Assembly: GCA_017452505.1 (NCBI GenBank)
Contig: JAFTMI010000027.1
Span: forward strand, 1 to 64,000
Reading direction: 5' to 3'
DNA from: Oscillospiraceae bacterium
GTDB lineage: Bacteria > Bacillota > Clostridia > Oscillospirales > Oscillospiraceae
DNA: 64,000 nucleotides
In this document: piece after piece, positions 3,001 to 41,007 of the stretch
Layout: each line of letters opens with the position of its first letter
How positions within the stretch are numbered: position 1 is the stretch's first letter
Notes under the pieces: generated by a model
The model's input: only the letters and a program-made list of their open reading frames with translations
Database searches by the model: none
Told to the model about the DNA's origin: nothing
Translations under genes and position numbers: made by a program

Positions 3001-6000
3001 GAAGTTGCTGCCGGGATCTGCCTCAGTAATGGTGACGGGCGTGCCTGCCGGCAGGTCAAGGATCTCGACGGTCTGTCTTGCCTTGAGCAGGAAAGGTATC
3101 TTGCCGGCGCTATCCACGGTCACTTCATAAGGATCGATATAGGCGCTGTTCTTCACGGTGAATTTCTTGCCGATAAGGGCAGAGCCTACACGGACAGTGA
3201 TATCAAATTTCTTGTCCAACACACTGGCGGGGACATTGTGGTCGCTGGTGATCTCTTTTGTGATGAAGAGGTTGCCGTACTTGTTGGGGGCGTTGGTGAC
3301 AGTTGCGGGCGCAAACTGTGCAGCGCCGTTTTGCAGCACATCACTCAGCAGAGGAACGCGGACAGTGGCGGTCTTGCTCTCGATGTAGTAATCGCCCTTT
3401 ACATTCTCGCCGATGGTGCATTCCGTGCCGCCGGGGATGCCGCTGATGTAGACGGTTTCTCCTGCCTTGACATTCACGGTCAGCACATTGCCGGTGTAGG
3501 TAGCGGTTACTTCGTTGCCCTGGGCGTCCAGCACCACGGGGTCGGCGACCACACCGGCAGGAACGGTAACGGTCAGCTCATAGAGATCGTCGGGATTGCC
3601 GATGGCCTCGGTGACAGCCTTGGTCAGAGCAATACCGGTGTCGATATTCAGCGTGATACGGCCGTTGTTGCCCAGCCATACGACCACGTCGTTGCCGTGG
3701 TGCGCGGAGGCATTTTCGTGGGTATACACGGGGGCATAGCGGTCAATGGCGGTGTCGGTGAGATTGTTGCCCTTGGCAACGGTCATATTGTGCAGACGGC
3801 TGGTACGCAGAGAGCCAATGCCCAAAACTGCGTAAAGCTCTGCATCGGGGTTCGCCTGCTTATAGGCGGCGATGGTGCTTTCTACCTGATTTTCAGGGAT
3901 GGCCTTGGCATCATTTAAGTATGTACGGGTGTTGTTATCAAAGAAGGCAACGGATTCCTTCAGATGGCGCCAATCGGCATATCTCAGGTAGGTGACTTCC
4001 TCGGCTGCGTTGGCGGCATCGGTAGTGCTGGGGGTGGGGTGGTAGTAGGTTACGTAGGTGTAGACGATATCGGAGGGTTGTGCGTTTTTGTACTGCTCAT
4101 AGGTCATCCAGGTCAGTTCGTATTTGGATTCATCCCAAACGATGCCGTATTCTTCGTTGGGGGTGATGGTGACATTCTGACCGGTCTTTTTGTCAGTGAT
4201 CTTGGTGAAGATACCCTGGTTTGTCTGATGGTAGTAGTATCTGTTGGCTGCGGAGGGCTGGAAGCCTACGTGGGCGTCGCCGAAGTAGACATCGCCGCCG
4301 GCATCAGCAGGATTCATCACACCGTAGCGGTTGCTGTAGAAGGAAACGGTGCCGTTCTGGTCGTCGATGTGGGAGTAGCCCTGGATCTTGGAAACATCAA
4401 CCTCGCCGTTGGGCAGCAGGATGTCGGAAGCCACACCCACGGTGTAGTACACCCGCAAAGGCGCCTGCTTCAGCTCGGTGATGGTGGCGGCGGTATCTTC
4501 GCCGATGGTTTCGGACTCTACCTTCTCCATAATAATGGGAAGGATCTCCTGATTGATCCTGATTTCCAGCTTCTGGACACCGTCTTCCACGGTCACGGAG
4601 ATGGTGATATCCTCAGCGGTATTCCAGCTTTCGTTGGTGGTGGGGTTGCTGCCGGTGCCGGCATCTACAGTGTAGGTGCCGTTGGCGTTCTTCACCACGC
4701 CGTAGGAGGAGCCAAACAGGGTGATGGCCTGGATCTCCTTGATCTCCATATGCTGACCGATGTAATCCACATAGATCAGAGGGGTATCGTCCACGCCTGT
4801 GCCGCCGGCAGTGGTGGTGGAGCTGGAGATGGGGTTGAAAGCGCCGGAAACCAGTTCCTCATAGATCTGCTGGAACACATCCTGCAGGCTGGCGCTTGCC
4901 ACGGGATAGAAGCTATCCACATAGTTGATGTTGCTCTGAATATCTGCCAAAGTAACACCGGTATACTTGTGGTCGAAGGTGAACTTGTAGTTGCCGTAAT
5001 AGTTTTCTGTTCTTTCCACGCTGCCGTTGACTTTATCCTGCAGGTTCAGCCACTGCTGATAAAGCCGGTAGGCGGTGGTGACGGAGGAGTTGCTGTTGCT
5101 GCTGTTGAAGCCATCTCTGGCAGCGCCGGGGTTGATGACAGCGTTAGCAGCGGCATCGCCATCGATATCAACGCCCACGCCGTAGATCATAGGTGCTTTG
5201 CCGTAGACATCTGCTACCTTTGCCTTTTTGTAGGCTGCAGTCAGCAGCGTTGCCATAAGGACACTGGGAGCGGTAGAGCCGGTAAAGATAGACACGGGGG
5301 TCTGGCTGTCGATGTTGTAGAAGGTGTTCTGGGCTGCGGTATTTGCTGCGCCGTCGGTCAGCACGATGGCAACGGGAGTACGGCCCTGGGTGTTCTGTGC
5401 CTTTTCCAGCATGCCCAAGCCCATATTCACACCGGCCTGCACATTGGTGCCTCTGTTGTAACCGGAGGTGTTGTTGTAAAGCAGGGTGCCGTTCTTATCG
5501 AAGGCCTGGATCGTGCCGCCCTTGTCCCGGCTGTTGTACTCGTCGAAGGCGTATTTGTTGTTCAGGACTTTCAGCTGGATGCCGTTATTGTATGTGCCGA
5601 AGGGAAGGACCTGCATGGAATTGCTGTTGTAAGCAACGATGCCGATGCGCACATCCTGCATAGACAACAGGTCTGTCAGCAGGCTGTTGGAGGCCTCAAT
5701 CAGCTTTTCCAGGCGGGTGGTATTGCCGCTGATGATATCATCCATAGAGGTGGAGTCATCCAGCACCAGGACCACATCCATGGGAGCGGAGGAGGTGACG
5801 GTCTCTTTGGAGGTCATGGTAGAGCCCAAAGCGGAGAAAATGACCTGGAAGGCCTCGTTGTCTGCCAGGGTGACCTGGAAGGAGGAGCCTGCCTCACCTC
5901 TGGTGTTGAGGAGGGCGGTGTCGCCGTTCTTATAAACGGACTTGTCGACCCACACACGGCCGGCATAGCGGTTGCCGTCGGCATCGGTGCCCATCATGGA

Positions 6001-10668: not shown

Positions 10669-11118
10669 TTATTGGCGGCGGCTGCCGTCAGCGGTGAAAA
10701 ACTTTGCGCACAAAATGGCAATGCCCAGCCGGACAGCACCGATCAGACCCAGCTGCCACAGCAGGCACACCATGGCAGAGCGCGCCACCTGATAGGTGTC
10801 CTTGCCGATAAAGGTCAGGTCTACAATAATGGCGATGACCAGCAGGATAAGGCCTAAAGCACTAAAGGCAATGCCGGCAATTCTCTGAGAAAAACGCCAG
10901 GCTTCCACACTGCCCATACCGAAATATGTACGGAAGCCGAATTTATAATTGGCCTCCGGCGGTGCCATAAACCGGTACATAAAGCCCAGGATCAGCAGGG
11001 AAAGCGGGCCTGCCAGCAAAAGGATAGACAGCAAAAAACGAATGAGGCCCAACATGGTGTTTAAGTTAGGCACTAAGGCCGCAAAATCCATATCAAAAAG
11101 GCCGGTGATCAAATCCAT
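10669..11118 (-). CDS. SdpI-like membrane protein
   Basis: A 149-residue integral membrane protein with three to four hydrophobic segments (about 22-48, 80-105, 118-142). The stretch FGFRTYFGMGSVEAWRFSQ (about 65-83) matches the conserved SdpI/YhfL C-terminal motif (FGxRT..S...W..). In Bacillus SdpI is the immunity protein against the SdpC toxin and captures the repressor SdpR; most homologues, like this one, have no SdpC neighbour, so immunity is not implied. AAGGAG precedes the ATG. It lies 11 bp downstream of nrdR. Confidence 0.7.
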   Translation of the reverse strand: MDLITGLFDMDFAALVPNLNTMLGLIRFLLSILLLAGPLSLLILGFMYRFMAPPEANYKFGFRTYFGMGSVEAWRFSQRIAGIAFSALGLILLVIAIIVDLTFIGKDTYQVARSAMVCLLWQLGLIGAVRLGIAILCAKFFTADGSRRQ

Positions 11119-11129
11119 GGGGTTTCTCC

Positions 11130-11585
11130 TTATTTCTCTTCCAGGAACTGCTCGATCTCGTGGACAAAGCTGCGCACATCCACAAACCGACGGTATACAG
11201 AGGCAAAGCGGATATAAGCCACCTCATCCAAAGTCTTGATCCGCTCCATCACCATTTGGCCAATGGTGTCGGTGCTGACCTCCCGTTCCAAAGTGTTCTG
11301 AATGGTCTGCTCGATCTCGGTAGCAATTCGGTCCAGATCCTTCACATCCACCTTCCGCTTGTCAAAAGCCCGGACCATAGCGTTAAGAATCTTATTCCGG
11401 TCGAAGGCTTGGCGGGTGCCATCCCGCTTCACAACGATGATGGGCAGGCTTTCCACTACTTCATAGGTGGTGAAACGGCGCTGGCAGTTCAGACATTCCC
11501 GGCGGCGGCGAATGCTCTGGCCGTCCTCGGAATGACGGGAGTCTACAACTTTACTTTCCTGGTCTCCGCAAAATGGACATTTCAT
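11130..11585 (-). CDS. nrdR: Transcriptional repressor NrdR
   Basis: A 151-residue protein starting MKCPFCGDQESKVVDSRH. A zinc ribbon (CPFC at 3-6, CLNCQRRF at about 31-38) is followed by an ATP-cone (about 46-136, VVKRDGTRQAFDRNKI). NrdR represses ribonucleotide reductase genes in response to ATP/dATP. The start at 11585 is preceded by AAAGAGGTG; the longer open frame to 12158 is an upstream artefact. Its own promoter is at 11641-11669. Confidence 0.97.
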   Translation of the reverse strand: MKCPFCGDQESKVVDSRHSEDGQSIRRRRECLNCQRRFTTYEVVESLPIIVVKRDGTRQAFDRNKILNAMVRAFDKRKVDVKDLDRIATEIEQTIQNTLEREVSTDTIGQMVMERIKTLDEVAYIRFASVYRRFVDVRSFVHEIEQFLEEK

Positions 11586-27609: not shown

Positions 27610-27779
27610 ACGAGCTCCTTTCCAATGGATATAGTTTCCCCAGTGGCAACTTCATCGGTTTCTACCCGGTTTCCATGGAAATCACAATGTGTGTAATCTC
27701 AAAAACCGTTGCGAGACAAAGACTTTCGTCGTGCGATAGCGTTTTCTTTTGTTTCTGTCTCTTTTGTGAAATTGTCTGG

Positions 27780-28085
27780 GTCAGTACGATGCCGCGTGGG
27801 AAGACAGCTTCCTGTCATTCATAGGTGATGACGGCGGCGGACACAAGCCGCTGAACTCGGCTGCAGCAATCACTGCATGTGTCCGGCGATTCCCTCGACA
27901 AGAATCAACGCGGGAGAACTCCTTGTTGCCGAGCCGGCATTGCAATTGCCGGAACAAGGGAGCCGGTTTGTGGCAAGCAAACCGAACAAACATAGCTCTG
28001 TACTTGCGTTACAGAGAGTGGGACTTTTCCTGCAGTCCGTAGTGCAGTTGTTTTTGTCCATTGGATGGGCGTATGGGATACCCAT
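27780..28085 (-). ncRNA. Highly structured non-coding region, possible ncRNA of unknown class
   Basis: About 300 bases with dense nested inverted repeats: GACACA/TGTGTC around a GCCG..CGGC hairpin, GCCGGCATTGCAATTGCCGG, CTGCAGT/GTGCAG, GGGCGTATGGGATACCC. GC content is higher than in the adjoining cargo. No frame has a ribosome site or convincing protein. A mobile-element RNA (HEARO/omegaRNA-like, intron fragment) is possible, but I cannot identify it. The rest of 27610-27780 shows nothing I can name. Confidence 0.35.
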
Positions 28086-28843: not shown

Positions 28844-30127
28844 TTATGTAATCTTTCTTTTAAAAATACATGTCTCAGTTTTTACAACAGCGAGCCACAA
28901 AGAAACAAACCCGATAATAGAAATAACTATCAAAAGGATGCCGACATAAAGAACACTTTCAATAGAATAACGGTGGACAGAAAGTACGCCTAATCCAAAG
29001 AATAATACAATGATGTTTGTGAGCAAGTTACACGCAAATAGCCGCTTGTTTTTCTTCTTCTCCTCATCAATGCTTTTTGTCTTAGATGTGCTAAAAATAG
29101 TTTTATCATTTAAAAGAGGAAAACACTTCTCTACTACATTTATCATAGCAACGGCTTGCAGACTATCCTTGAAGGTTTCTTCTCGAATAGGATCACAAGG
29201 AAAAATATCATTTTTGGCAATTCCCCAGTCACAAATACCTTTTATAACCGCGCAAGGAATATCGCAATTATTGGATACTTGGAAAAGTGCACTTCCTTCC
29301 ATTTCTCCGCCTACAACAAAATCGTTCTTCGTGTATGCATTACACACCTTATCTTTTTCATCAAAAGAAGACATAACGGAACCGCCGGACAAAACACCGC
29401 CATATGTAACACCATCAAGGAATCCATTGGCATTAACAAACCGTACATCTAGCCAACTATCAATGCTCTTATCTTGCGATCTGTCCGGTTTTATAAATTC
29501 TTCATCTCGCTTATTTTCACTGTAAGGGAAAAGTTTTTTAGAGACTATCACATCACCAATATTTTGTGATTCAAAATCGATTCCAAATGCTACGCCAAGA
29601 GAAAGTATAACATTGGGCTTAAAATGCTTAAGCGCTTCATTAACGGTTGTGTTCATACCCAAATCTTTATATGATCCGGTTTGCGGTTGATGAATATGTG
29701 CGACCCAGTATGCTCCCCATTTAAAAATAAAATATGCATTAGTACCGCAAATTATCCTAATTATTTTTTTGTTTTGTCCGTTACTTGTGACGCGAGAATG
29801 CAGTACCGCTTTCTCAATCGGATTAGCCGTAATAACCATTACTTTACACCGAGTCAACATGCAGTTTAATTCTTTTTCATCTATCAACTCATACCATTTC
29901 TCAATAAAGCCACACGATATTGCATTTTTGTAGCAATTGTAAGCTTCTGATAGTTCTTTGCCATGCTCTTTTTCATAGTTTCGCATATGCGATATAAATT
30001 CATTTCTATATTGGTTATCTGGAGCGTTTTGCTCCATTCGTGTAGCAACACGATCAAGATAATCGTCCCATTTCTGAATGGTATATTTTCCATGCTTACG
30101 CAGCGGGATAGGAACTTCAGTTTTCAT
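28844..30127 (-). CDS. Nucleoside phosphorylase-like protein with two C-terminal membrane helices
   Basis: A 427-residue protein from the ATG at 30127 (AAAAGGATG ahead; an upstream ATG at 30166 lacks one). About residues 95-335 match the PNP/MTA-SAH nucleosidase fold: VILSLGVAFGI, GDVIVSKKLFPY, GVLSGGSVMSS, VVGGEMEGSALFQ (ligand-binding Met-Glu) and KGICDWG. The tail has two hydrophobic helices (about 370-388 and 395-418) after a Lys-rich linker. Nucleosidase-like domains tethered to membrane segments occur as predicted effectors in nucleotide-based bacterial conflict systems. It lies 73 bp after the AMP-ligase gene on the same strand and is probably co-transcribed. Activity and substrate are inference. 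Confidence 0.75.
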   Translation of the reverse strand: MKTEVPIPLRKHGKYTIQKWDDYLDRVATRMEQNAPDNQYRNEFISHMRNYEKEHGKELSEAYNCYKNAISCGFIEKWYELIDEKELNCMLTRCKVMVITANPIEKAVLHSRVTSNGQNKKIIRIICGTNAYFIFKWGAYWVAHIHQPQTGSYKDLGMNTTVNEALKHFKPNVILSLGVAFGIDFESQNIGDVIVSKKLFPYSENKRDEEFIKPDRSQDKSIDSWLDVRFVNANGFLDGVTYGGVLSGGSVMSSFDEKDKVCNAYTKNDFVVGGEMEGSALFQVSNNCDIPCAVIKGICDWGIAKNDIFPCDPIREETFKDSLQAVAMINVVEKCFPLLNDKTIFSTSKTKSIDEEKKKNKRLFACNLLTNIIVLFFGLGVLSVHRYSIESVLYVGILLIVISIIGFVSLWLAVVKTETCIFKRKIT

Positions 30128-30200
30128 GATTGTCACATCCTTTTCTATATATTTGGTCTGTTGCACTAAATATAGGTTATTTCAACCTCAGAACCAATGC

Positions 30201-31946
30201 TTAAATCTTGATTATTCCTTCAACATCCTTTTTTATAAACGGTACGTCCCTTTTTCCAGAGTGTGCGCTTGGGAAACTATCCCATATGCAGAAACTGTGG
30301 GGAACTGCTTCGGGTAATTTTATAACATGCTCAACAAGCTTTTGAATTTCTGCGAAGTAATCCATCTGCTTTTCGGGATTTTGTCTCAGAAGCGCGCCTG
30401 TGTCGTTTTCCCAAACAATATGTGCTACCAATCTATTGTTGTCCTCGGGGTGGGTTTGAATCTCGCACAGTTTAACCTTTTCAGAGGAGAGAATTGCTCT
30501 TTCGATATCAAAATTGTAAATCTGTGTGCCGTCAATTACAGAGTAATCGCTCTTTCTCCCCAAAACAACAAGGCTGCCATCTTCGTTCATATAGCCTATA
30601 TCACCAGTCTTACTCCAACGATCACCATTCTCATCAATGTGGAAAAACTCCGCTGTTGCTTCAGAGTTGTTGAAATACTCGATCATACCGATCTCAGTCT
30701 TAACCAAAATGTTTCCTCGTTCGCCATATTTCAATTCCTTAAAGTCATCATCGAAAATCCCAACCGTTGTGATGTCAGGAAGAGGGATACCTGATGCAGT
30801 GTTAGAGAATTTCTGTGATGTAATATCCGTTGTTACGGTTGCACCACACTCACATTCACCATAGCCGTTGAGTAACCGAGCTTTGGAGCCATGGTTTCTG
30901 AACACACCTTCAATATTTGCAATATCTTTTTCTGTTAGGGGTTCTCCACCTTCGACAGGATACTTTAGGAACGCCAAAGACTTGCCCTCGAGCAACTTCA
31001 AGCTTTTCTCAAAGGTAAAGCCTTGGTACATAGATGTGTTTGTTAAGATATATTCAGGCTTGAACTTGAGAACGTTTTTTACAAATGCAGTATGGTCAAA
31101 CCTTGGATCAATACACACTTGAACACCGAAAGACAGTGGGAAGTTAATACCCAAACTTAGGCCGGTGGAATGCCATGGCGGAATGTTTTGATAAACCTTC
31201 TGTTTTCTTGATGTATCAAAACCGGAATTGCCATATGCATTGATCAGCTTTTGGAAGCTATCAACGGAAAGCACAATTCCTTTAGATGCACCGGTTGTGC
31301 CGCTTGAATAAACCATAGCCTGTGGTTTCTGTGGCGCATAGGGGTCAACAGCGGCGTCATTTCGGCAAGCACCATCTTTAATAAAGGTCTTCCAAGCGAC
31401 CTCGTTTGTCTTGCCATCAATTATATATTTCGGAGATATAAATCTTAAAACCGAGGAATTCATCATCGGTAATACAACAATCTTTTTGTCAGCATCCCTG
31501 AACAGCAGCTCTTTGAACTTAGGTAAGAACTTATCAACCATGATGATAAGTTTGCTGCCACATTCATCGATTCTGGCCAAAAGTTCCTCAGGTGTGTAGA
31601 ATGGCGAAATAACATTTGCCACCGCACCAATTTTACTGATAGCATAAAAAGTGTAAATAACTTCTGGCGTAGTAGTGGAACAAATTGTCACATAGTCGCC
31701 CTTTTTGACCCCATATGCTTCTAACGATTTTGCAACAATGTCAGTATTTCTTATGAGCTCACCAAAAGTGACTTTTGCACCAAAATATTCAAGCGCAATT
31801 TCATTAGGATAATCGGCATTGTTCTTAATCAAGCCTTGATATGGGGTGGAATTTAAGAATATGCTCCGCTTTTCAACACCCTCATAAAACCGATTCCATG
31901 GCTTGTCTATTGACGGATAGCCCGTCAGTTTCTTCTCTGTAGGCAT
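30201..31946 (-). CDS. AMP-forming acyl-CoA synthetase/ligase family enzyme
   Basis: A 581-residue ANL-superfamily adenylate-forming enzyme. P-loop-like A3 motif YSSGTTGASKG (about 213-223), A5 GYGECECGA (about 354-362), A7 SKTGDIG (about 443-449), A8 RKSD (about 460) and the A10 lysine in SGKRDV (about 565). It would activate a carboxylate with ATP; the substrate is not evident. The start at 31946 gives a proper distance to GGGAG; an ATG at 31952 is too close to it. Its mRNA leader carries a structured element and an intrinsic terminator (separate entries), so expression is probably attenuated. The phosphorylase-like gene follows. An ANL enzyme in such a cluster is unusual. Confidence 0.85.
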   Translation of the reverse strand: MPTEKKLTGYPSIDKPWNRFYEGVEKRSIFLNSTPYQGLIKNNADYPNEIALEYFGAKVTFGELIRNTDIVAKSLEAYGVKKGDYVTICSTTTPEVIYTFYAISKIGAVANVISPFYTPEELLARIDECGSKLIIMVDKFLPKFKELLFRDADKKIVVLPMMNSSVLRFISPKYIIDGKTNEVAWKTFIKDGACRNDAAVDPYAPQKPQAMVYSSGTTGASKGIVLSVDSFQKLINAYGNSGFDTSRKQKVYQNIPPWHSTGLSLGINFPLSFGVQVCIDPRFDHTAFVKNVLKFKPEYILTNTSMYQGFTFEKSLKLLEGKSLAFLKYPVEGGEPLTEKDIANIEGVFRNHGSKARLLNGYGECECGATVTTDITSQKFSNTASGIPLPDITTVGIFDDDFKELKYGERGNILVKTEIGMIEYFNNSEATAEFFHIDENGDRWSKTGDIGYMNEDGSLVVLGRKSDYSVIDGTQIYNFDIERAILSSEKVKLCEIQTHPEDNNRLVAHIVWENDTGALLRQNPEKQMDYFAEIQKLVEHVIKLPEAVPHSFCIWDSFPSAHSGKRDVPFIKKDVEGIIKI

Positions 31947-31964
31947 TTTCATTTCTCCCGTAAT

Positions 31965-31992
31965 AAAAAAGTGCGCAGACGAAGCTGCGCAC
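31965..31992 (-). terminator. Intrinsic terminator inside the AMP-ligase leader
   Basis: On the minus strand GTGCGCAG pairs with CTGCGCAC across six bases and is followed by TTTTTTATT. It ends about 15-20 bases before the AMP-ligase start codon, so unless it is bypassed the gene is not transcribed. Confidence 0.85.
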
Positions 31993-32124
31993 CGAAAAAT
32001 GCACCGCCTCTAACCGCCGCGACGCAAGTCTTCACATATCCCAAGGAATGCGAAATGAAGAGTGCATTTTTACCAAAGTAAAATACGCACTCCTTGGGAG
32101 TTTTATGTATTAACTTGCGTCGCA
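31965..32124 (-). promoter_or_regulatory. Structured leader of the AMP-ligase operon, riboswitch/attenuator-like
   Basis: The predicted transcript starts near 32124 at the base of a long stem: GCGACGCAAGT (32019-32029) pairs perfectly with ACTTGCGTCGC (32113-32123). Inside it CCCAAGGAATGCG (32040-32052) pairs with CGCACTCCTTGGG (32086-32098; one mismatch). Overlapping that, GAGTGCATTTTTAC (32060-32073) can pair with the GTAAAATACGCACTC at 32078-32092, so two folds compete. A terminator follows just before the gene. I do not recognise a known riboswitch class. Confidence 0.65.
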
Positions 32125-32129
32125 TGACC

Positions 32130-32158
32130 ATATTATCACAATTTTACATCTAAAGCAA
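32130..32158 (-). promoter_or_regulatory. Promoter of the AMP-ligase/phosphorylase operon
   Basis: On the minus strand TTGCTT (32158-32153), 17 bases, TAATAT (32135-32130), placing the start right at the leader's closing stem. Confidence 0.65.
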
Positions 32159-32244
32159 GTTATTTAATGCCTACAGATAGAGAGATATCAATTTAGAATC
32201 AGCACCAGTCAAAACTGATGTACTATTGCAACACCATATTAAAC

Positions 32245-32781
32245 CTATGACTCTTGAAGCTTTTTTACCAATTCTGCATATTCCGCTTTTATCTTAACTG
32301 GTATTTCATTTCGCTGTGATATCGCTTTACCAAGCTCGGTATAATACCAAATTACATCATCCTTGGTCGCTGAAAAACGCTGCCAAACTATTTCTCCCGA
32401 CACGGATAGATCATAAACGATACTCCGTAAATTTGAGAGTTTATCTGCACTCAAGACCAGTGCTACATTTATACCTGTTGTCGCTATTTTGTTTATTGTT
32501 CGCAATTTGCGTTCCTTCCAGCTGGCTGTATGCGAATTGGAACACGACTCCACTATCATTGCAATTTTATCACCGAAAGCATTCTGTATGTCAGAATACG
32601 AAACATCTGTATCCTCTAATACATCATGCAAAACTCCCGCAATCAAAACTTCTTCAGATGTGTCTATTCCTGATAAGATTTGAGCAACTTCCATTGGATG
32701 AATAATATACGGCAACGATGTACCCTTCCTAAGTTGCCCAACATGCGCTGTTGCCGCAAAAATTACTGCTGTATGAAACAT
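32245..32781 (-). CDS. Small HD-domain alarmone hydrolase (MESH1/SpoT-hydrolase-like)
   Basis: A 178-residue single-domain HD phosphohydrolase. It has the SpoT/MESH1 hydrolase pattern: AHVGQLRKG and PYIIHP (first metal His residues, about 12-30), LHDVLEDT (HD pair, about 51-58) and SADKLSNLR (about 112-120). These enzymes remove pyrophosphate from (p)ppGpp or pppApp. GGGAGG precedes the ATG at 32781. It is divergent from the alarmone synthetase gene, sharing a 226-bp control region, the layout expected for a toxic small alarmone synthetase and its neutralising hydrolase. Its stop is followed by the AMP-ligase promoter. Confidence 0.85.
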   Translation of the reverse strand: MFHTAVIFAATAHVGQLRKGTSLPYIIHPMEVAQILSGIDTSEEVLIAGVLHDVLEDTDVSYSDIQNAFGDKIAMIVESCSNSHTASWKERKLRTINKIATTGINVALVLSADKLSNLRSIVYDLSVSGEIVWQRFSATKDDVIWYYTELGKAISQRNEIPVKIKAEYAELVKKLQES

Positions 32782-32878
32782 TTTGTCCTCCCTAAAAATA
32801 ATCATTTATAGAGCATACAATCTTTGTGATAAAATCAATCATCAAGCTTGTTATTGTTAATCTAACATGCATTTTCCA

Positions 32879-32916
32879 TGTAATTAGCAAAAATGTTTGC
32901 GTGTAATTAGCAAAAA
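32879..32916. repeat. Tandem 15-bp repeat in the synthetase/hydrolase control region
   Basis: TGTAATTAGCAAAAA occurs at 32879-32893 and 32902-32916, 23 bp apart, ahead of a TATAAT at 32947-32952 that probably serves the synthetase gene. It is a likely operator. Confidence 0.5.
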
Positions 32917-33007
32917 ATTGTAGACACGTAATATTTTTTATGTTATTATAATCGTAATTTTATCATTAATGCTATTCCATTATTTGCTATTTGAAAGAAG
33001 GTTTAAT

Positions 33008-34009
33008 ATGCCCGGTTCTGAAATAGATAAAAAAGCCGCAGCTAAAGAACGATTTCTTAAAAAATATGACAATATTAAATTAAGAAAGGATCTTGATTTA
33101 GTAGAAAAGAGAATACCGGATTTCTGGGAAAATGTAGAGGAGATTCGGAAACACTATGAAAAATCTATTTCAAGCTACAAAAGCACACTAAGTGATATTA
33201 TTGACTCAATAAGCCATGCTGACATGGATAAGCCGGTTATCCACTCAATTCGGTACCGAATTAAGGATGCAGATAGTTTGATTGTAAAGATCATTCAAAA
33301 GAGTGCTAAGGTACCGGAATCACCGCAGGGTAATGCAGAGATAGAGAAGTATCGTAACCTCACAAAGGACAATTACTATAAAATTATTACTGATCTTATC
33401 GGAATAAGAATATTAATTCGCTATAGATATCAATGGAAGAGTGTTCACTCATTGGTATGGAAATTGTTCAAATCGGAAGAACACGAGTATATTGAGGATT
33501 GGATCACCGAATACCAAAATGACCGTGCAGTTAAATATATTGTCGAACAGCCAAAAGCTTATGTAAAGCAAATATCCGATCGAGCTGTATATGAAGAAAT
33601 AGGCAAGAACATTTTTGACATCAGGGATTCTGACAATCATTATGCTAGTCTTCATTATATAATAAATGTAGGTGGCTGCTATTGCGAACTCCAAGTTCGA
33701 ACTATTTTTGATGAAGCTTGGTGCGAATGCAACCATGATTTTGTCTATAAAGCACACATTAAGTCTCAACAGGCTAAGAACACATTAGAACGTTTGTCGG
33801 TAATTCTTTCTCAGCATACTACTGCGGCAGAAAGTATTGTGGCACTTATGTGTGATTTGGCAACTTCACCCCCCTCTCGCAAGAAGAGCACACCAATCGA
33901 GACAGTTAGCACGTCCGATGTAAAAAACCAAGAGAAAGTTTTTACATCCATACAAAAGCGGGCTACGCACTTGTCTCAGTCTGATATGCCAGACAATTAT
34001 CTTATGTAG
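33008..34009 (+). CDS. RelA/SpoT-type alarmone synthetase domain protein
   Basis: A 333-residue protein from the ATG at 33008 (AAAGAAGG ahead). The RelA/SpoT nucleotidyltransferase domain covers about 60-270 with its key features intact: HSIRYRIKDADSLIVK, DLIGIRIL (catalytic Asp), NHYASLHYI and ELQVRTIFDEAWCECNHDFVYK (in two parts; Glu, Gln-x-Arg). There is no HD hydrolase, TGS or ACT domain, so it is a small alarmone synthetase with a helical N-terminus and a Ser/Thr-rich, probably flexible C-terminus. It may make (p)ppGpp/pppApp or, as some toxSAS proteins do, pyrophosphorylate tRNA. It heads a three-gene unit. Confidence 0.85.
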   Translation: MPGSEIDKKAAAKERFLKKYDNIKLRKDLDLVEKRIPDFWENVEEIRKHYEKSISSYKSTLSDIIDSISHADMDKPVIHSIRYRIKDADSLIVKIIQKSAKVPESPQGNAEIEKYRNLTKDNYYKIITDLIGIRILIRYRYQWKSVHSLVWKLFKSEEHEYIEDWITEYQNDRAVKYIVEQPKAYVKQISDRAVYEEIGKNIFDIRDSDNHYASLHYIINVGGCYCELQVRTIFDEAWCECNHDFVYKAHIKSQQAKNTLERLSVILSQHTTAAESIVALMCDLATSPPSRKKSTPIETVSTSDVKNQEKVFTSIQKRATHLSQSDMPDNYLM

Positions 34010-34023
34010 TAAGGGGTCTTTAT

Positions 34024-34236
34024 ATGGAAACGAATATTGCTTTGCAAAATGCACGGGCTTTTATAAAAATGGTTAAAACAGGAAAGTTGCCAAAAGAAAT
34101 TCTTCCTAACAGTTCGCCGAATTATACTTATGATCGCGAAAAAAAGGATACTGCACATTATGTTCAGACGTTCTTGAATTCCTCAAGCTATGACTTTATA
34201 AAACGAAGCGAGGAGGTACGCTATAATGGCGAATAA
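34024..34236 (+). CDS. Small protein co-transcribed with alarmone synthetase
   Basis: A 70-residue, charged protein starting METNIALQNARAFIKMV, with AAGGGG ahead, 14 bp after the synthetase stop and overlapping the next gene by 11 bp. No domain recognised and no signal peptide. Its place in the operon suggests an adaptor, antitoxin or regulator of the synthetase (inference). Confidence 0.65.
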   Translation: METNIALQNARAFIKMVKTGKLPKEILPNSSPNYTYDREKKDTAHYVQTFLNSSSYDFIKRSEEVRYNGE

Positions 34237-34756
34237 TAGCACATTTTCATATCAAGATGTTCTCGCAAACTTTGGAGAAGAAAAAGTTGCACAAAGATAC
34301 ACAAGTATCTTCACGCAAATGGATGGATTTATTCGAAGAAATAAGTATGAGGGTAAAGTGATTATATGCCCAAGTATTCTCAACCAGTTGGTGATAGATT
34401 ATTTCACAGACATATACCGGCTCAAAGAATTTCATCATATAGATTTGACTAACTACATTAAAATTACCGCTTATATGTCATACTGGCTAGTTAGAAGAAA
34501 ACCTTTGCAGGTCATCAAAGATGATATCGAAGATATTGATTTGGCGTTTTGCAATGAGAACTTTGTCCTAAGTTATATCATGCGTTTTTTGCAAGGTTCT
34601 GTTGTTAACGTACATGATGAAAATGGTGTATACCATGAATTTGTTTCAACACTGAGTTACGCTTTGAGATATCGAACACTTACGCCTCAAATGATTGAAC
34701 TTATGTTGGAAGGATTTATGGGCGGTAAAGTTTTTCAGAAAACCAGTCTAGAATAA
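34226..34756 (+). CDS. Partner protein of the alarmone synthetase unit, unknown
   Basis: A 176-residue, mostly helical protein preceded by GAGGAGG within the previous gene and overlapping it by 11 bp, which implies coupled translation. No catalytic motif or membrane helix that I recognise (central segment NYIKITAYMSYWLVRRK). A strong terminator follows. The conserved-looking tight operon suggests that it works with the synthetase. Confidence 0.7.
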   Translation: MANNSTFSYQDVLANFGEEKVAQRYTSIFTQMDGFIRRNKYEGKVIICPSILNQLVIDYFTDIYRLKEFHHIDLTNYIKITAYMSYWLVRRKPLQVIKDDIEDIDLAFCNENFVLSYIMRFLQGSVVNVHDENGVYHEFVSTLSYALRYRTLTPQMIELMLEGFMGGKVFQKTSLE

Positions 34757-34902: not shown

Positions 34903-36078
34903 TTACTTCTTATCTCTGCTTGAATTAAAATCGATTACGATAGGTTTGGACAGCGACTCAGCGCTTAGATATCCGCTAGGCAACCCACATATTTCTTCAA
35001 TGTCTTTAGATGGCAATCTAAATAAGGAAGTGAACTCCTCTTTTGTATAGTCTCCACGATCAATTAACATTTGCGATGCAGTACGAAGAATAACAGCATT
35101 CTCACAAGGCCAAACATCGTCATACGGTTCATTCTTACGCCACCGTTTTGCAGATATCTGCTTCTGAATATATATCATTTGATTCTCAGAAAAAACTTCT
35201 AATTCGCGGCAACGATAAACCATTGCCTGAATGGAAACTTTCCATTTTTCTTTAAGTGGAAGAAAAGACATCAGCGACGTGGATCGAATGTCTAACAAAA
35301 ATGAAACTCTAGGCAACAAAAAGCAGGAAGCAAATTGATTTGCTTCTCGCTCAATTCTATTAAGAGTATTCCTGTCCTCTAATTCGACTTGTGAAATATC
35401 TTGATGAAGAAGAAGGTGTCCTAGCTCATGTGCCATATTGAATCGTGTCCGAACAGCACACTCTTTTTGAAGGTCTAAAAAAATAAAAGGCCGTTTTCCA
35501 ATAACCGCTGAACACGCATCTGTTTCAGAAAAGCCCGTCTTGACTGATGCTACAACAATGCCATGAGATTCCAACAATCTGGACATATTTGATATTGGAG
35601 CCGTACCGATCTTCCAGTACTTTCTTAAAAACATTGTAATTTCTTCAATATCGTCATATGAATACGATGCGCTTTGTAGGAATTTTTCTGGAAGTGTGGG
35701 CAGGTCTGCATCTGGGAAAAGAATTTCCTCGGCCAAGATTTTAGATAACTGTGCTGCCCATTGTATCTTTACAGTTAAGATGTCTTTTGCTCGTACAGCG
35801 TTGGTTTTTAGACTACGAAAAAAAACTGTACCTTGATTTTCCGGGGCAGAAAGCGGCTTGTGAAAAAAAGAAAGCGGCATATTCAAGCTGCGAGCAATTT
35901 CATTTATGACAATACTGCTAGGCTCAGCTATTCCAAGTTCATATTTTGAAATAGCTTGCCTCGTAACACCGACACAGGAAGCCAGGTCAATGGCAGTCAT
36001 TCCTCTTGCTAATCGTGCTTCACGAATTCGCTCCGGGACTAACGGCTCAATTGGCTGGAACCTAAATTGCTTTGGCAT
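34903..36078 (-). CDS. XRE-family regulator fused to ImmA/IrrE metallopeptidase
   Basis: A 391-residue protein. Residues about 15-70 are a Cro/C1-type HTH (RGMTAIDLASCVGVTRQAIS). About 165-300 is an ImmA/IrrE (COG2856) zinc peptidase domain with NMAHELGHLLLH (HExxH). In the ICEBs1 system ImmA cleaves the repressor ImmR; fused forms act as damage- or stress-controlled regulators of mobile elements and defence genes. GGGAGG precedes the ATG. It is 18 bp downstream of the 36097-36723 gene and shares its promoter. Confidence 0.88.
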   Translation of the reverse strand: MPKQFRFQPIEPLVPERIREARLARGMTAIDLASCVGVTRQAISKYELGIAEPSSIVINEIARSLNMPLSFFHKPLSAPENQGTVFFRSLKTNAVRAKDILTVKIQWAAQLSKILAEEILFPDADLPTLPEKFLQSASYSYDDIEEITMFLRKYWKIGTAPISNMSRLLESHGIVVASVKTGFSETDACSAVIGKRPFIFLDLQKECAVRTRFNMAHELGHLLLHQDISQVELEDRNTLNRIEREANQFASCFLLPRVSFLLDIRSTSLMSFLPLKEKWKVSIQAMVYRCRELEVFSENQMIYIQKQISAKRWRKNEPYDDVWPCENAVILRTASQMLIDRGDYTKEEFTSLFRLPSKDIEEICGLPSGYLSAESLSKPIVIDFNSSRDKK

Positions 36079-36096
36079 AGTGTTTGCCTCCCATTT

Positions 36097-36723
36097 TTAT
36101 TTTGCTTCTTCCTGTCTATCTCGAAGTGCATTTTTGAAATCCAGCACAATTTCGTCATTGACAGGCTCACTATCAACGATGGTCAATCCTCTAACGACAC
36201 TATTCAAATCAACTTGCTGTGCCCAAGCTCCCATGTCAGGAGTCGGGATACCACAACAAACGAATGAGGGAAGTGCTGATCCGTAACCATGGGTCAAAAT
36301 CCCATAAATATTTTTCTCAGCGCTGAACGCAGGCTCAAAACCCTCCATGGCAATTTGCCCATTCAGGCAATAATCATTACGAAAAATACAGTCGCGCGGC
36401 AAAGACCAAACATGTGGAGTCTGGCTTACGGTCAATACAAAGTTGCCCTGACGAAGTTCAAGATGTTTGTGGTTCATTCTTGAATTGGGAACAAAACAGC
36501 TCTCAAAAGGGAGCATGCCCTCCCGAGCACGACGATCCAGTTCATACTCAACAGCCCAATTCTTTAGATGGGGCAAAATCTGCCGACCTAAAACTCCCCC
36601 TAAAAAATCAAAGGTGTCCGCAGCTTCCTTCGCTAATGCATAGGCAGCAGTAAAGGCAGGGAGCAGAACCATTGCAACACTTGGAGTAATAATATCTTTT
36701 TCGATATCAACATTCTTGACCAT
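36097..36723 (-). CDS. Unknown protein paired with ImmA/IrrE regulator
   Basis: A 208-residue protein from the ATG at 36723 (AGGAGG ahead; the frame runs upstream but past the promoter). A weakly hydrophobic stretch (TPSVAMVLLPAFTAAYALA, about 12-30) is followed by a soluble domain with NHKHLELRQGNFVL and a C-terminal DFKNALRDR. This fits the DUF4393-like small proteins only loosely, and I give no family. It may be a substrate or partner of the peptidase-regulator. Confidence 0.6.
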   Translation of the reverse strand: MVKNVDIEKDIITPSVAMVLLPAFTAAYALAKEAADTFDFLGGVLGRQILPHLKNWAVEYELDRRAREGMLPFESCFVPNSRMNHKHLELRQGNFVLTVSQTPHVWSLPRDCIFRNDYCLNGQIAMEGFEPAFSAEKNIYGILTHGYGSALPSFVCCGIPTPDMGAWAQQVDLNSVVRGLTIVDSEPVNDEIVLDFKNALRDRQEEAK

Positions 36724-36787
36724 AGGTGCCTCCTGTAACATCAAAGTGGTATGCACCTATATTACTAAAAAAAGCCCGTTTTGTCAA
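36722..36787 (-). promoter_or_regulatory. Promoter and operator of the ImmA/IrrE pair
   Basis: On the minus strand TTGACA (36787-36782), 17 bases, TAATAT (36764-36759): near-consensus. ATAGGTGC (36722-36729) is mirrored by GCACCTAT (36753-36760), an 8-bp inverted repeat spanning the -10 edge to the start codon, a plausible operator for the XRE protein. Confidence 0.7.
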
Positions 36788-39288: not shown

Positions 39289-39423
39289 AAACACAGAAAA
39301 GTTCAACGCATATAGCAAACAAATTTGGGCACCGGGTTTTGTTTGATTCCAATATTGAGATTGTGTTTTTTATGGGTTCGTGATACAATTTGTTATAAGG
39401 ATGTAATAAGGTAGGTGAAACAA

Positions 39424-41007
39424 ATGGATAAGGAGCAGCAGCAAATTTCCATTGCTGATGTTTACCAAATGATGAAGCAAGGACAGTTACGGGTACCTGC
39501 GTATCAACGTGAATTCGTTTGGAGCGAAAGTCAGCAGGAACTGCTGATTGATAGCATTATGCAAGGGATATATGTCGGGCAGATGTTCATTGCAAAAGGT
39601 GAACAGTGTGATAGCTACGACATTATAGATGGCCAGCAAAGAATAAAGACTATCTGTAATTTTATTGATAATAATTTTCAGATTAACACGATTGTTTTTG
39701 ACGAATCTCAACGAGAAGAATTTCTAAACAAAAAGCTGCATTTCTTTGTGCTTAATGATGTTATCAGCACAGAAAAGATAACCGAAGTCTTCCGCTTAAT
39801 AAATACCGCAGGTGAGCCGCTTACTGCTCAAGAAATCCGTCGAATAAACGCAAAAGGAAACTTTGCCGAAACGGTAAAAGCAATAACAAACGCGGCTTAT
39901 CCGCAAAAAACGAATGCTACCGATCCCTCTCCACACGGCTTTACAACAAATATATGGGAGAAGTTTGGGGTTCTTTCAAGCAAAGAACTAAAGCAAGGGG
40001 CAGACGAGGTTCTAATTTCCAGAATTCTCTTGGCGATCATCCAAGGTCACTGTCAACCGCATGATGAAGCTTTGTTGGATGAAGTATACAAAACAAATAG
40101 TGACCTGCACAAAGAAATTGAAGCCAAACTTGAAGATTTTCCGATTTCTGTTCTTATCTTACGGTTAGAAGAAACGCTTTCGCTGTTGGCGATGCCTATG
40201 GTAGATATAAACGGATTGTCAAAAGAATGCTTCTATATCAGCTTCTTATCGCTATACAATTTACTACTTGAAGGAGCTAAAATAACCAATTCCACATCCC
40301 TAAGTCTGGCATTTAGCGAGATCAATCAACTAGTACCCCCTGATACTATATCGGAAAAACAGTACTCCTGCCTAATGGACTATGCTAAATTCCAAATTAC
40401 GCAGAAATGCATAGAGGAAAAAGCGGGCGACGCGATTGGTATAAATGAACTGGAAGCGGCTCTGTATCGCGCAAAAGTTGAAACTGCAGGATATGAGTTT
40501 AAGCAGGGCATATTGTTTTTGGATGAGCAACGCAATGAGAATGAACATCTAATGAATGCAATTCTAGAAACAATATGCGGAATGGCAAATTCTTGCCTAT
40601 CTGGCTCTGCCTACTTGTTTATTGGCATAGCAGATAAGAAGCAAGATGCTCTGCGAATTGCAGAGCTTGACCATATCAAACCGGCATTTGTGGCGGATCA
40701 CTACATTGTAGGAATTGAGAGAGAAGCCAAGGCCTTAAATATCTCCGTCGAAGGATATTGCAGACGGATCAAAAATGCAATTGATACACCCAAACTGTCC
40801 AAAGCATTAGCCTTGTCGGTTCTCCCCAATATAGACATCGTACGATATCGGGATCTTTCTGTTCTTCGGATAGAAGTTCCTCCGCAAAACGAAATCTCCT
40901 ACTTTGATGGTAAGATTTATATTAGAAAACATAGCAATACAGAGGAAGTGACTTTGGCCTGTGACATCGTCGCAATAGCAAATCGCTTCTTTTACAAAAA
41001 CAAGTAA
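39424..41007 (+). CDS. DUF262 (GmrSD/ParB-like) protein fused to AlbA_2 domain
   Basis: A 527-residue protein from the ATG at 39424 (GGTAGGTG ahead). Residues about 1-190 are a DUF262 domain: VPAYQREFVW, LIDSIMQG and DGQQRIKT (the DGQQR motif shared with GmrS, SspE and other anti-phage NTPase/nucleases). About 365-475 match the Schlafen AlbA_2 domain (ETAGYEFKQG, SAYLFIGIADKK). No HNH domain (DUF1524/GmrD) is seen, so the AlbA_2 part replaces it. DUF262 proteins sense or restrict modified phage DNA. The next gene starts 63 bp later on the same strand. Confidence 0.8.
   Translation: MDKEQQQISIADVYQMMKQGQLRVPAYQREFVWSESQQELLIDSIMQGIYVGQMFIAKGEQCDSYDIIDGQQRIKTICNFIDNNFQINTIVFDESQREEFLNKKLHFFVLNDVISTEKITEVFRLINTAGEPLTAQEIRRINAKGNFAETVKAITNAAYPQKTNATDPSPHGFTTNIWEKFGVLSSKELKQGADEVLISRILLAIIQGHCQPHDEALLDEVYKTNSDLHKEIEAKLEDFPISVLILRLEETLSLLAMPMVDINGLSKECFYISFLSLYNLLLEGAKITNSTSLSLAFSEINQLVPPDTISEKQYSCLMDYAKFQITQKCIEEKAGDAIGINELEAALYRAKVETAGYEFKQGILFLDEQRNENEHLMNAILETICGMANSCLSGSAYLFIGIADKKQDALRIAELDHIKPAFVADHYIVGIEREAKALNISVEGYCRRIKNAIDTPKLSKALALSVLPNIDIVRYRDLSVLRIEVPPQNEISYFDGKIYIRKHSNTEEVTLACDIVAIANRFFYKNK

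What the first reader, a model, noticed from the sequence alone, without database searches (positions are those of the whole stretch)
28844..34756. Candidate new conflict system: alarmone synthetase, alarmone hydrolase, AMP-ligase and membrane-tethered nucleosidase
Seen: an intact RelA/SpoT-type synthetase operon with two coupled small genes, divergent from an intact SpoT-like HD hydrolase, followed by an AMP-forming ligase and a phosphorylase-like protein with two terminal membrane helices. Known: toxic alarmone synthetases are neutralised by hydrolases, and PNP-like domains act as predicted effectors in nucleotide-signal immunity. Inferred: the synthetase may produce a nucleotide signal or toxin whose level is set by the hydrolase, with the phosphorylase-like protein as effector. 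The ligase has no obvious place in known systems.
Basis: partly seen in the sequence, partly recalled or inferred. Interest (0 to 1): 0.8.

Follow-up and report, generated by a model that had tools for sequence, protein, structure and literature searches.

The report
Toxin-like gene trio beside unlisted RNA switch
The cluster is not one four-part machine: its core is a mobile three-gene unit that looks like a toxin with two partner proteins, and one neighbouring gene is preceded by a switch-like RNA that is absent from the RNA family database we searched and occurs many times in related bacteria.

Summary
They do not form one system. (1) The synthetase travels with the two small genes: in 3 of 3 relatives found in a scan of 84,980 species genomes (63, 40, 38% identity) gene order and overlap are kept, while hydrolase, ligase and phosphorylase are absent nearby. 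The 176-aa family also sits beside membrane proteins in three other genomes. Best reading: a toxSAS-like toxin-antitoxin or defence module whose partner protein is used with different effectors; function inferred. (2) The hydrolase is an ordinary small alarmone hydrolase, optional here. (3) The ligase has its own promoter and a ~163-nt leader RNA with terminator; related ligases carry this leader in two other genomes without the rest. The RNA matches no Rfam 15 family, was matched in 67 of 197 order and 67 of 245 class genomes (up to 11 copies, the scoring limit), and has two mutually exclusive helices, each supported by covariation. It precedes varied genes, exported proteins among them. Ligand and effect on termination are unknown.

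The parts
33008..34009 (+). SYN: RelA/SpoT-domain synthetase, 333 aa from the likely start (open frame from 32969)
   Evidence: PF04607 E 1.1e-12; relatives at 63/40/38%; own clade with moderate support 85/89
34024..34236 (+). S70: 70-aa partner, no known family
   Evidence: next to SYN in the window and 3 of 3 relatives, 70/44/43% identity; no significant Pfam, NCBIfam or PDB relative
34226..34756 (+). S176: 176-aa partner, no known family; its start overlaps the end of S70
   Evidence: window and 3 of 3 relatives, 76/49/50% identity; overlap kept; family also beside membrane proteins
32245..32781 (-). HD: small alarmone hydrolase, likely start 32781 (open frame to 32805), divergent from SYN
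   Evidence: HD_4 E 4.2e-21; nearest solved relatives 7qoe, 4yf1, 7qoc; not found beside SYN in 3 of 3 relatives
32873..32916 (.). two copies of a 21-bp repeat between HD and SYN, possible operator
   Evidence: not seen upstream of SYN in L126-L128 except one chance-like partial match in L127
32130..32158 (-). promoter-like sequence of the ligase leader: TTGCTT, 17 nt, TAATAT, 4 nt before the modelled RNA start
   Evidence: by eye; a strict pattern placed a promoter exactly 4 nt before the RNA in 28 of 48 copies, elsewhere in 3, and found none in 17 including this one
31963..32125 (-). leader RNA, family not in Rfam 15: P1, P2, alternative helices a:c and c:d, terminator
   Evidence: MFE z -7.0 for 31950-32145
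31963..31993 (-). intrinsic terminator within the leader RNA (hairpin 31971-31993 plus U tract)
   Evidence: terminator arms covary across 48 copies, 0 of 2000 shuffles
30201..31952 (-). AMP-forming ligase, 583 aa
   Evidence: PF00501 E 1.5e-50; relatives under the same RNA in L114 (36.9%) and L093 (27.3%)
28844..30166 (-). phosphorylase/nucleosidase-fold protein with two C-terminal hydrophobic helices, 34 bp after the ligase
   Evidence: PF01048 E 2.5e-10; PADLOC 'Effector, PN-superfamily' E 1.7e-5 over 36 residues only; only partial nucleosidase-domain matches in 3 of 146 other order genomes, none in plasmids or viral contigs

Best explanation
The stretch holds three independent units side by side in a mobile island. 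Unit 1, SYN-S70-S176, is a three-gene toxSAS-like module: SYN is a nucleotide or tRNA pyrophosphokinase that stops growth when free; the tightly coupled S70 and S176 hold it inactive, S176 belonging to a partner family that is also attached to other, membrane-located effectors; infection or loss of the partners would release SYN. Unit 2, the HD hydrolase, is a small alarmone hydrolase that could lower background product but was not found with the module elsewhere. Unit 3, the ligase (perhaps with the phosphorylase behind it), is transcribed from its own promoter through a ~163-nt leader RNA whose strand c pairs either with upstream strand a (hairpin) or with downstream strand d (pseudoknot next to the terminator), so that the choice between the two folds sets read-through. 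Shown: gene linkage, overlap of the small genes, absence of the other parts in the relatives held, RNA covariation, leader position. Inferred: toxicity, neutralisation, trigger, transcription start, and the effect of the RNA on transcription.
For: Module: 3 of 3 relatives keep SYN-S70-S176 and lack HD, ligase, phosphorylase in the DNA held; S70/S176 overlap kept in all four; SYN relatives form one clade (85/89; 88% of bootstrap trees); one locus sits 3' of tRNA-Pro with an integrase-like gene behind it. S176 family with other proteins: two loci with a 150-aa membrane protein, SLATT_5 E 0.0068 and 0.03 and PADLOC RTasSLATT E 0.0012 (the last for L138 only), below the Pfam cut-off, and one with a 4TM and a 1TM protein (by eye). 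RNA: 67 of 197 and 67 of 245 genomes, own genome counted in both; a:c and c:d own pairs better than swapped pairs, 0 of 2000 each in 48 copies and in 32 non-redundant ones, a:d control null, repeated in 22 further copies from four genomes: a:c 0 of 2000, c:d 4 of 2000, a:d 1487 of 2000; 43 of 48 copies have a start codon with ribosome-binding-like site within 130 nt, 34 within 35 nt, against 10 and 1 in the antisense control; three ligases under it.
Against: No activity was measured. SYN, S70 and S176 match no PADLOC model at E<=0.1, and S176 no known antitoxin: Panacea by hhalign probability 0.1%, nothing in PDB below E 0.26. Only four intact copies of the module are known. The supposed fifth, decayed copy (L136) is weak: its synthetase-like fragment scored blastp E 0.002 and was missed by the SYN profile, and its 70-aa ORF was missed by the S70 profile. 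The SLATT likeness competes with other weak matches (DUF2232 E 0.0044 for L137, Serinc 0.02 for L138). SYN's other relatives are chromosomal synthetases without these partners, so a non-toxic role is possible. HD and SYN do share one divergent region here (163 bp between open frames). The alternative helices do not covary with the terminator arms, so how the RNA would control read-through is not shown. 8 of 22 copies in the second set have no clear gene within 160 nt.
Confidence: 0.6

Rival explanations
1. One reading: synthetase makes a nucleotide signal, hydrolase sets its level, phosphorylase with membrane helices is the effector, ligase an accessory.
For: All genes are intact and adjacent in one island; phosphorylase has a short PADLOC effector match; SYN and HD are divergent neighbours.
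Against: 0 of 3 SYN relatives have HD, ligase or phosphorylase in the flanks held; the ligase is tied to a separate leader RNA that recurs with ligases elsewhere. Of four plasmid neighbourhoods of HD relatives opened, two (H8, H15) have named neighbours and none of these is a synthetase; H9 has no annotation and H12 only hypothetical genes.
Confidence: 0.06
2. FaRel-like arrangement: SYN is a (p)ppApp- or (p)ppGpp-making toxSAS with two antitoxins, the hydrolase HD and the S70/S176 pair; ligase and phosphorylase are unrelated.
For: Cellulomonas marina FaRel is flanked by a hydrolase antitoxin and a second type II-like antitoxin (PMC11782079, passages); HD is intact, nearest to solved small alarmone hydrolases, and divergent from SYN with a repeated 21-bp motif between them.
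Against: HD not found beside SYN in 3 of 3 relatives; the repeat is not conserved upstream of SYN in them.
Confidence: 0.2
3. SYN-S70-S176 is a stress regulator, not a toxin: a small alarmone synthetase with two regulatory subunits carried on islands.
For: Nearest tree neighbours are chromosomal synthetases; no homology found to known antitoxins.
Against: Rare distribution and island or tRNA-side position in two of four loci; S176 family also occurs with membrane proteins.
Confidence: 0.15
4. The leader RNA is a mobile or repeated element (MITE-like, or terminator repeat) rather than a regulator.
For: Many copies per genome, tandem copies, copies on two unverified contigs labelled as phage; 8 of 22 copies lack a close downstream gene.
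Against: Promoter-like sequence at a fixed distance in 28 of 48 copies, start codon at a median of 18 nt, variable sequence with covariation in two alternative helices.
Confidence: 0.15

Closest known systems
toxSAS toxin-antitoxin modules (FaRel, FaRel2, PhRel, PhRel2, CapRel)
   Same: small RelA/SpoT synthetase encoded with small partner genes, on a mobile island here
   Different: partners S70 and S176 match no antitoxin family tested (Panacea; others only through profile searches of PDB sequences); activity untested
Cellulomonas marina faRel operon
   Same: synthetase beside a small alarmone hydrolase and a second partner
   Different: hydrolase not found with SYN in the relatives; two conserved small genes instead of one second antitoxin
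Panacea (PanA, SocA_Panacea) antitoxins
   Same: one partner family combined with different effectors (as described in the abstract of PMC8832971, search listing)
   Different: no sequence relation found: hhalign probability 0.1%, E 0.51, against a profile of only three Panacea proteins
SLATT 2TM effectors
   Same: the membrane proteins beside S176-like genes in L137 and L138 weakly resemble SLATT_5
   Different: scores 16.2 and 14.1 bits against a cut-off of 29.5, and other weak families score similarly
Transcription-terminating riboswitches and attenuators
   Same: 5' leader next to a promoter, mutually exclusive helices, intrinsic terminator before the gene
   Different: no Rfam match; no uniting downstream function; switch strands do not covary with the terminator
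Candidate structured RNAs of human microbiomes (PMC8040213)
   Same: similar habitat and kind; the motif could be among its thousands of candidates
   Different: its tables could not be searched here; the passages seen do not describe it

Membership tests
toxSAS toxin-antitoxin | RelA/SpoT synthetase domain with intact catalytic residues | tested here: met
   PF04607 E 1.1e-12; motifs conserved in the window protein and its three relatives (their catalytic role is recalled)
toxSAS toxin-antitoxin | conserved operon with an adjacent partner gene | tested here: met
   S70 and S176 in 3 of 3 relatives, overlap kept
toxSAS toxin-antitoxin | partner is a known antitoxin fold (pZFD/PAD1, Tis1-like, Panacea, SAH) | tested here: inconclusive
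   Panacea not met; no significant PDB or Pfam hit for S70/S176; SAH present in the window only; structure prediction was off
toxSAS toxin-antitoxin | synthetase toxic alone, neutralised by partner | not testable with these tools
   needs expression tests
Small alarmone hydrolase (SAH) | HD_4 domain close to solved SAHs with metal-binding motifs | tested here: met
   phmmer to 7qoe E 1.2e-36, 4yf1 2.8e-33
CBASS or nucleotide-signal immunity with PNP effector | signal-making enzyme fixed beside the PNP effector | tested here: not met
   no PNP in the flanks of 3 of 3 SYN relatives; no full-length relative of the PNP in 146 other order genomes
Known Rfam riboswitch or leader family | match to an Rfam 15 covariance model | tested here: not met
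   no match over the leader at E<=1; none over the copies in 18 loci at gathering threshold
Riboswitch (kind) | ligand binding that changes downstream expression | not testable with these tools
   needs probing and reporter assays
Riboswitch or attenuator (kind) | conserved leader with alternative folds before a terminator and gene | tested here: met

The most novel reading that the evidence does not exclude
The leader RNA is an undescribed, very abundant riboswitch-like class of Clostridia: a promoter-anchored ~163-nt RNA in which one strand chooses between a hairpin and a pseudoknot, controlling surface proteins, lipoproteins, AMP-ligases and mobile-element genes in answer to one common signal. 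Beside it, SYN-S70-S176 would be a conflict module in which one unknown partner family is combined with alarmone synthetases or membrane effectors.
Probability: 0.35. Interest if true: 0.85.

Novelty: new variant of a known kind. Interest (0 to 1): 0.62.

Why it matters
A leader RNA with 10 or 11 matches in 17 of 245 class genomes (11 candidates scored per genome) and no Rfam 15 match would imply a signalling layer that is directly testable by probing and reporters. The S176 family gives a handle on a conflict module whose effector can be an alarmone synthetase or a membrane protein, with partner proteins that match no antitoxin family tested here.

Tried and rejected
Co-occurrence in viral contigs for SYN, phosphorylase and ligase: no relatives (strict seeds, close relatives only). 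Plasmids: SYN 4 partial hits at 27-32% identity, phosphorylase none, S176 2 hits at E 0.008 and 0.03. Phages: SYN one partial hit. Order genomes: no close SYN in 294 others, 2 with weak matches.

Leader peptide instead of RNA: rejected, because distances between conserved blocks fall in all three frames (21/14/13 of 48) and the terminator start varies by one base. Strand invasion of the terminator by a, c or d: no covariation. Panacea as the fold of S176: no support. Shared operator conserved with SYN: not found. An exact motif scan of viral contigs for the leader gave 0; plasmids gave none. A search of plasmids with the S176-like protein of L138 gave none.

Literature: PMC11782079, PMC8040213 and PMC2864571 (passages found by term); PMC11109978 and PMC8632094 (term searches of the main text, 0 occurrences); PMC8832971 and PMC9712102 only in search listings with the start of the abstract. 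I found no description of the RNA, but that rests only and on these passages; supplementary tables were not searchable.

Full report
What is there. The window is part of contig C25 of a 1.99-Mb draft genome, 82.5% complete and 6.1% contaminated. The genes of the finding lie in an AT-rich island (mostly 37-42% GC; the flanks are mostly 50-58%) that begins with an integrase-like gene, a Tn916-type excisionase and a second recombinase-like gene (both recombinases by eye), the latter preceded by an xerDC RNA. All named genes are intact. The 60-aa ORF upstream of the ligase overlies the leader RNA described below.

Does it travel together? Close relatives of SYN are rare: 294 other genomes of the order gave only two with weak matches; 391 class genomes gave 16 with a match, own included, the best other one 35% over part of the protein. 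One scan of 84,980 species genomes with strict seeds gave 39 stretches, of which three encode a relative: L126 (Oscillospiraceae, 63%), L127 and L128 (Lachnospiraceae, 40 and 38%). In all three SYN is followed by S70 and S176 in the same order (alignments), and the start of S176 overlaps the end of S70 in all four loci. No homologue of the hydrolase, ligase, phosphorylase or RmrAT was found in those loci at blastp E 0.01; the loci are 12.1, 12.2 and 6.5 kb long, so more distant genes were not seen. L126 sits directly 3' of a tRNA-Pro gene with an integrase-like gene downstream (by eye). The four SYN proteins form one clade (support 85/89, under the program's star; 88% of bootstrap trees) next to clostridial chromosomal synthetases and apart from the synthetase that is paired with a hydrolase in L042 (long branches flagged by the program).

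The S176 family. A profile of S176 matched 7 of 391 class genomes including the own and, extended, 3 of 294 phylum genomes including the own (one of the three is a weak match inside an unrelated 641-aa protein). I fetched the flanks of four of the six other class loci (the two weakest, with stops, were left) and of the two other phylum loci. L137 and L138 have an S176-like protein followed at once by a 150-aa membrane protein with weak SLATT_5 likeness, among other weak likenesses. L180 has a 4TM protein, a 1TM protein and an S176-like protein (37%) in adjoining or overlapping frames (by eye). L136 has a 70-aa ORF, an S176-like gene split over two frames, and a fragment resembling the start of a synthetase (blastp E 0.002; missed by the SYN profile), so probably a decayed relative. 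L139 is degenerate. So the constant element is S176 and the changing one looks like an effector. This is why I read S176 as a partner of toxic effectors; whether it neutralises, senses, or both is inference. Panacea is not supported, and there is no significant PDB or Pfam relative.

The hydrolase. It belongs to small alarmone hydrolases with solved relatives 7qoe, 4yf1 and 7qoc. tblastn matches occur in 346 plasmid records, 34 of them covering at least 80% of it in one place. Of the four such neighbourhoods that I opened, two had named neighbouring genes and none of these was a synthetase; one record had no annotation and one only hypothetical genes. A hydrolase can neutralise toxSAS products, as in the FaRel operon (PMC11782079, passages), so it may help here, but it is not fixed to SYN.

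The ligase and its leader RNA. Upstream of the ligase a 196-nt stretch folds far better than shuffled sequence (z -7.0, 0 of 200). Two further copies lie elsewhere in the same genome. A covariance model of the three matched 67 of 197 genomes of the order, own included; a model of 48 copies matched 67 of 245 genomes of the class, 65 of them outside the order, and 17 had 10 or 11 matches with only 11 candidates scored per genome. E-values are rough and some listed matches are weak. No Rfam 15 family matches it. Two unverified contigs labelled as phage, from human faeces, also carry it; an exact motif scan of viral contigs and a search of plasmids gave none.

Anatomy in 48 copies: a sigma-A-like promoter, by a strict pattern exactly 4 bases before the RNA in 28 of 48 and by eye in most others, precedes stem P1 (consensus TTGCGACACAA...TTGTGTCGCA); inside lie P2 and strands a (TGCATTTTTACC-like) and c (GGTAAAAATGCATnCTC-like); after P1 comes strand d (GGAGnTATGCRTTTTTCG-like), directly followed by an intrinsic terminator, then a ribosome-binding-like site and start codon. 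43 of 48 have such a start within 130 nt and 34 within 35 nt, median 18; the antisense control gave 10 and 1. In the second set of 22 copies 14 had one within 160 nt.

Test of the switch. With the A and U runs removed, c pairs with its own d better than with the d of other copies (mean -10.63 against -8.24 kcal/mol, 0 of 2000 shuffles as low) and with its own a (-7.35 against -5.21, 0 of 2000); a against d, the control, shows nothing (605 of 2000). The same holds in 32 non-redundant copies and, in 22 copies from four other genomes of the class, for a:c (0 of 2000) and c:d (4 of 2000), with a:d null. Segments were cut by pattern and a few are imperfect. Shuffling does not remove shared ancestry, but the a:d control has the same ancestry. 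As a and d compete for the same bases of c, the RNA has two conserved exclusive folds. The terminator arms covary with each other but not with a, c or d, so the link between fold and termination is unproven.

What the RNA precedes. Of 54 distinct downstream proteins scanned, 7 match BspA-type leucine-rich repeats, 3 AMP-binding, 2 each Big_2, dockerin and HTH_3, and single ones SLH, NlpC/P60 and zinc ribbons (25 of 43 families shown). By a crude pattern 18 of 43 in the first set have a lipobox or hydrophobic N-terminus. The three ligases are those of the window, L114 (36.9% identity) and L093 (27.3%); no homologue of the phosphorylase, hydrolase or SYN was found in the 7-kb stretches around the latter two, and in both the RNA follows a tRNA gene on the same strand within about 250 nt. 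Hence the ligase belongs to this RNA's set of genes. The phosphorylase, 34 bp behind the ligase, probably shares its transcript; no full-length relative was found to test this.

Verdict. Toxicity, neutralisation, ligand and termination control are inferences to be tested.

Noticed in passing
window 34903-36756: RmrA and RmrT homologues (PADLOC E 3.2e-130 and 2.8e-38) follow SYN-S70-S176 on the other strand: a separate candidate defence pair, not found beside SYN in the three relatives.
   Followed up: partly
window 27779-27906: xerDC RNA (RF03062, 99.3 bits) upstream of the second recombinase-like gene.
   Followed up: no
window 39415-41007: 530-aa protein whose N-terminus matches PADLOC NsnA and related models (best E 8.6e-26); part of the same island.
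   Followed up: no
L042 9098-10680: An unrelated synthetase gene overlaps a small HD hydrolase gene, a second synthetase-hydrolase pair in the same order.
   Followed up: partly
L099 1120-1611: A homologue of the window's HD hydrolase (44.7% over 76 aa) lies near another copy of the leader RNA (3247-3415), on the other strand behind the gene that the RNA precedes; possibly coincidence.
   Followed up: no
L136 7208-8198: Probable decayed copy: 70-aa ORF, split S176-like gene and synthetase-like fragment.
   Followed up: partly
L165, leader copies at 3669-3854 and 11098-11285: Two leader RNA copies about 7 kb apart precede identical 83-aa proteins, suggesting duplication of leader and gene together.
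   Followed up: no
L102 3751-4313; L125 258-748; L166 3958-4401: Tandem copies of the leader RNA, each with a promoter-like sequence by eye.
   Followed up: partly
window 32873-32916: Tandem 21-bp repeat in the divergent HD/SYN region.
   Followed up: partly
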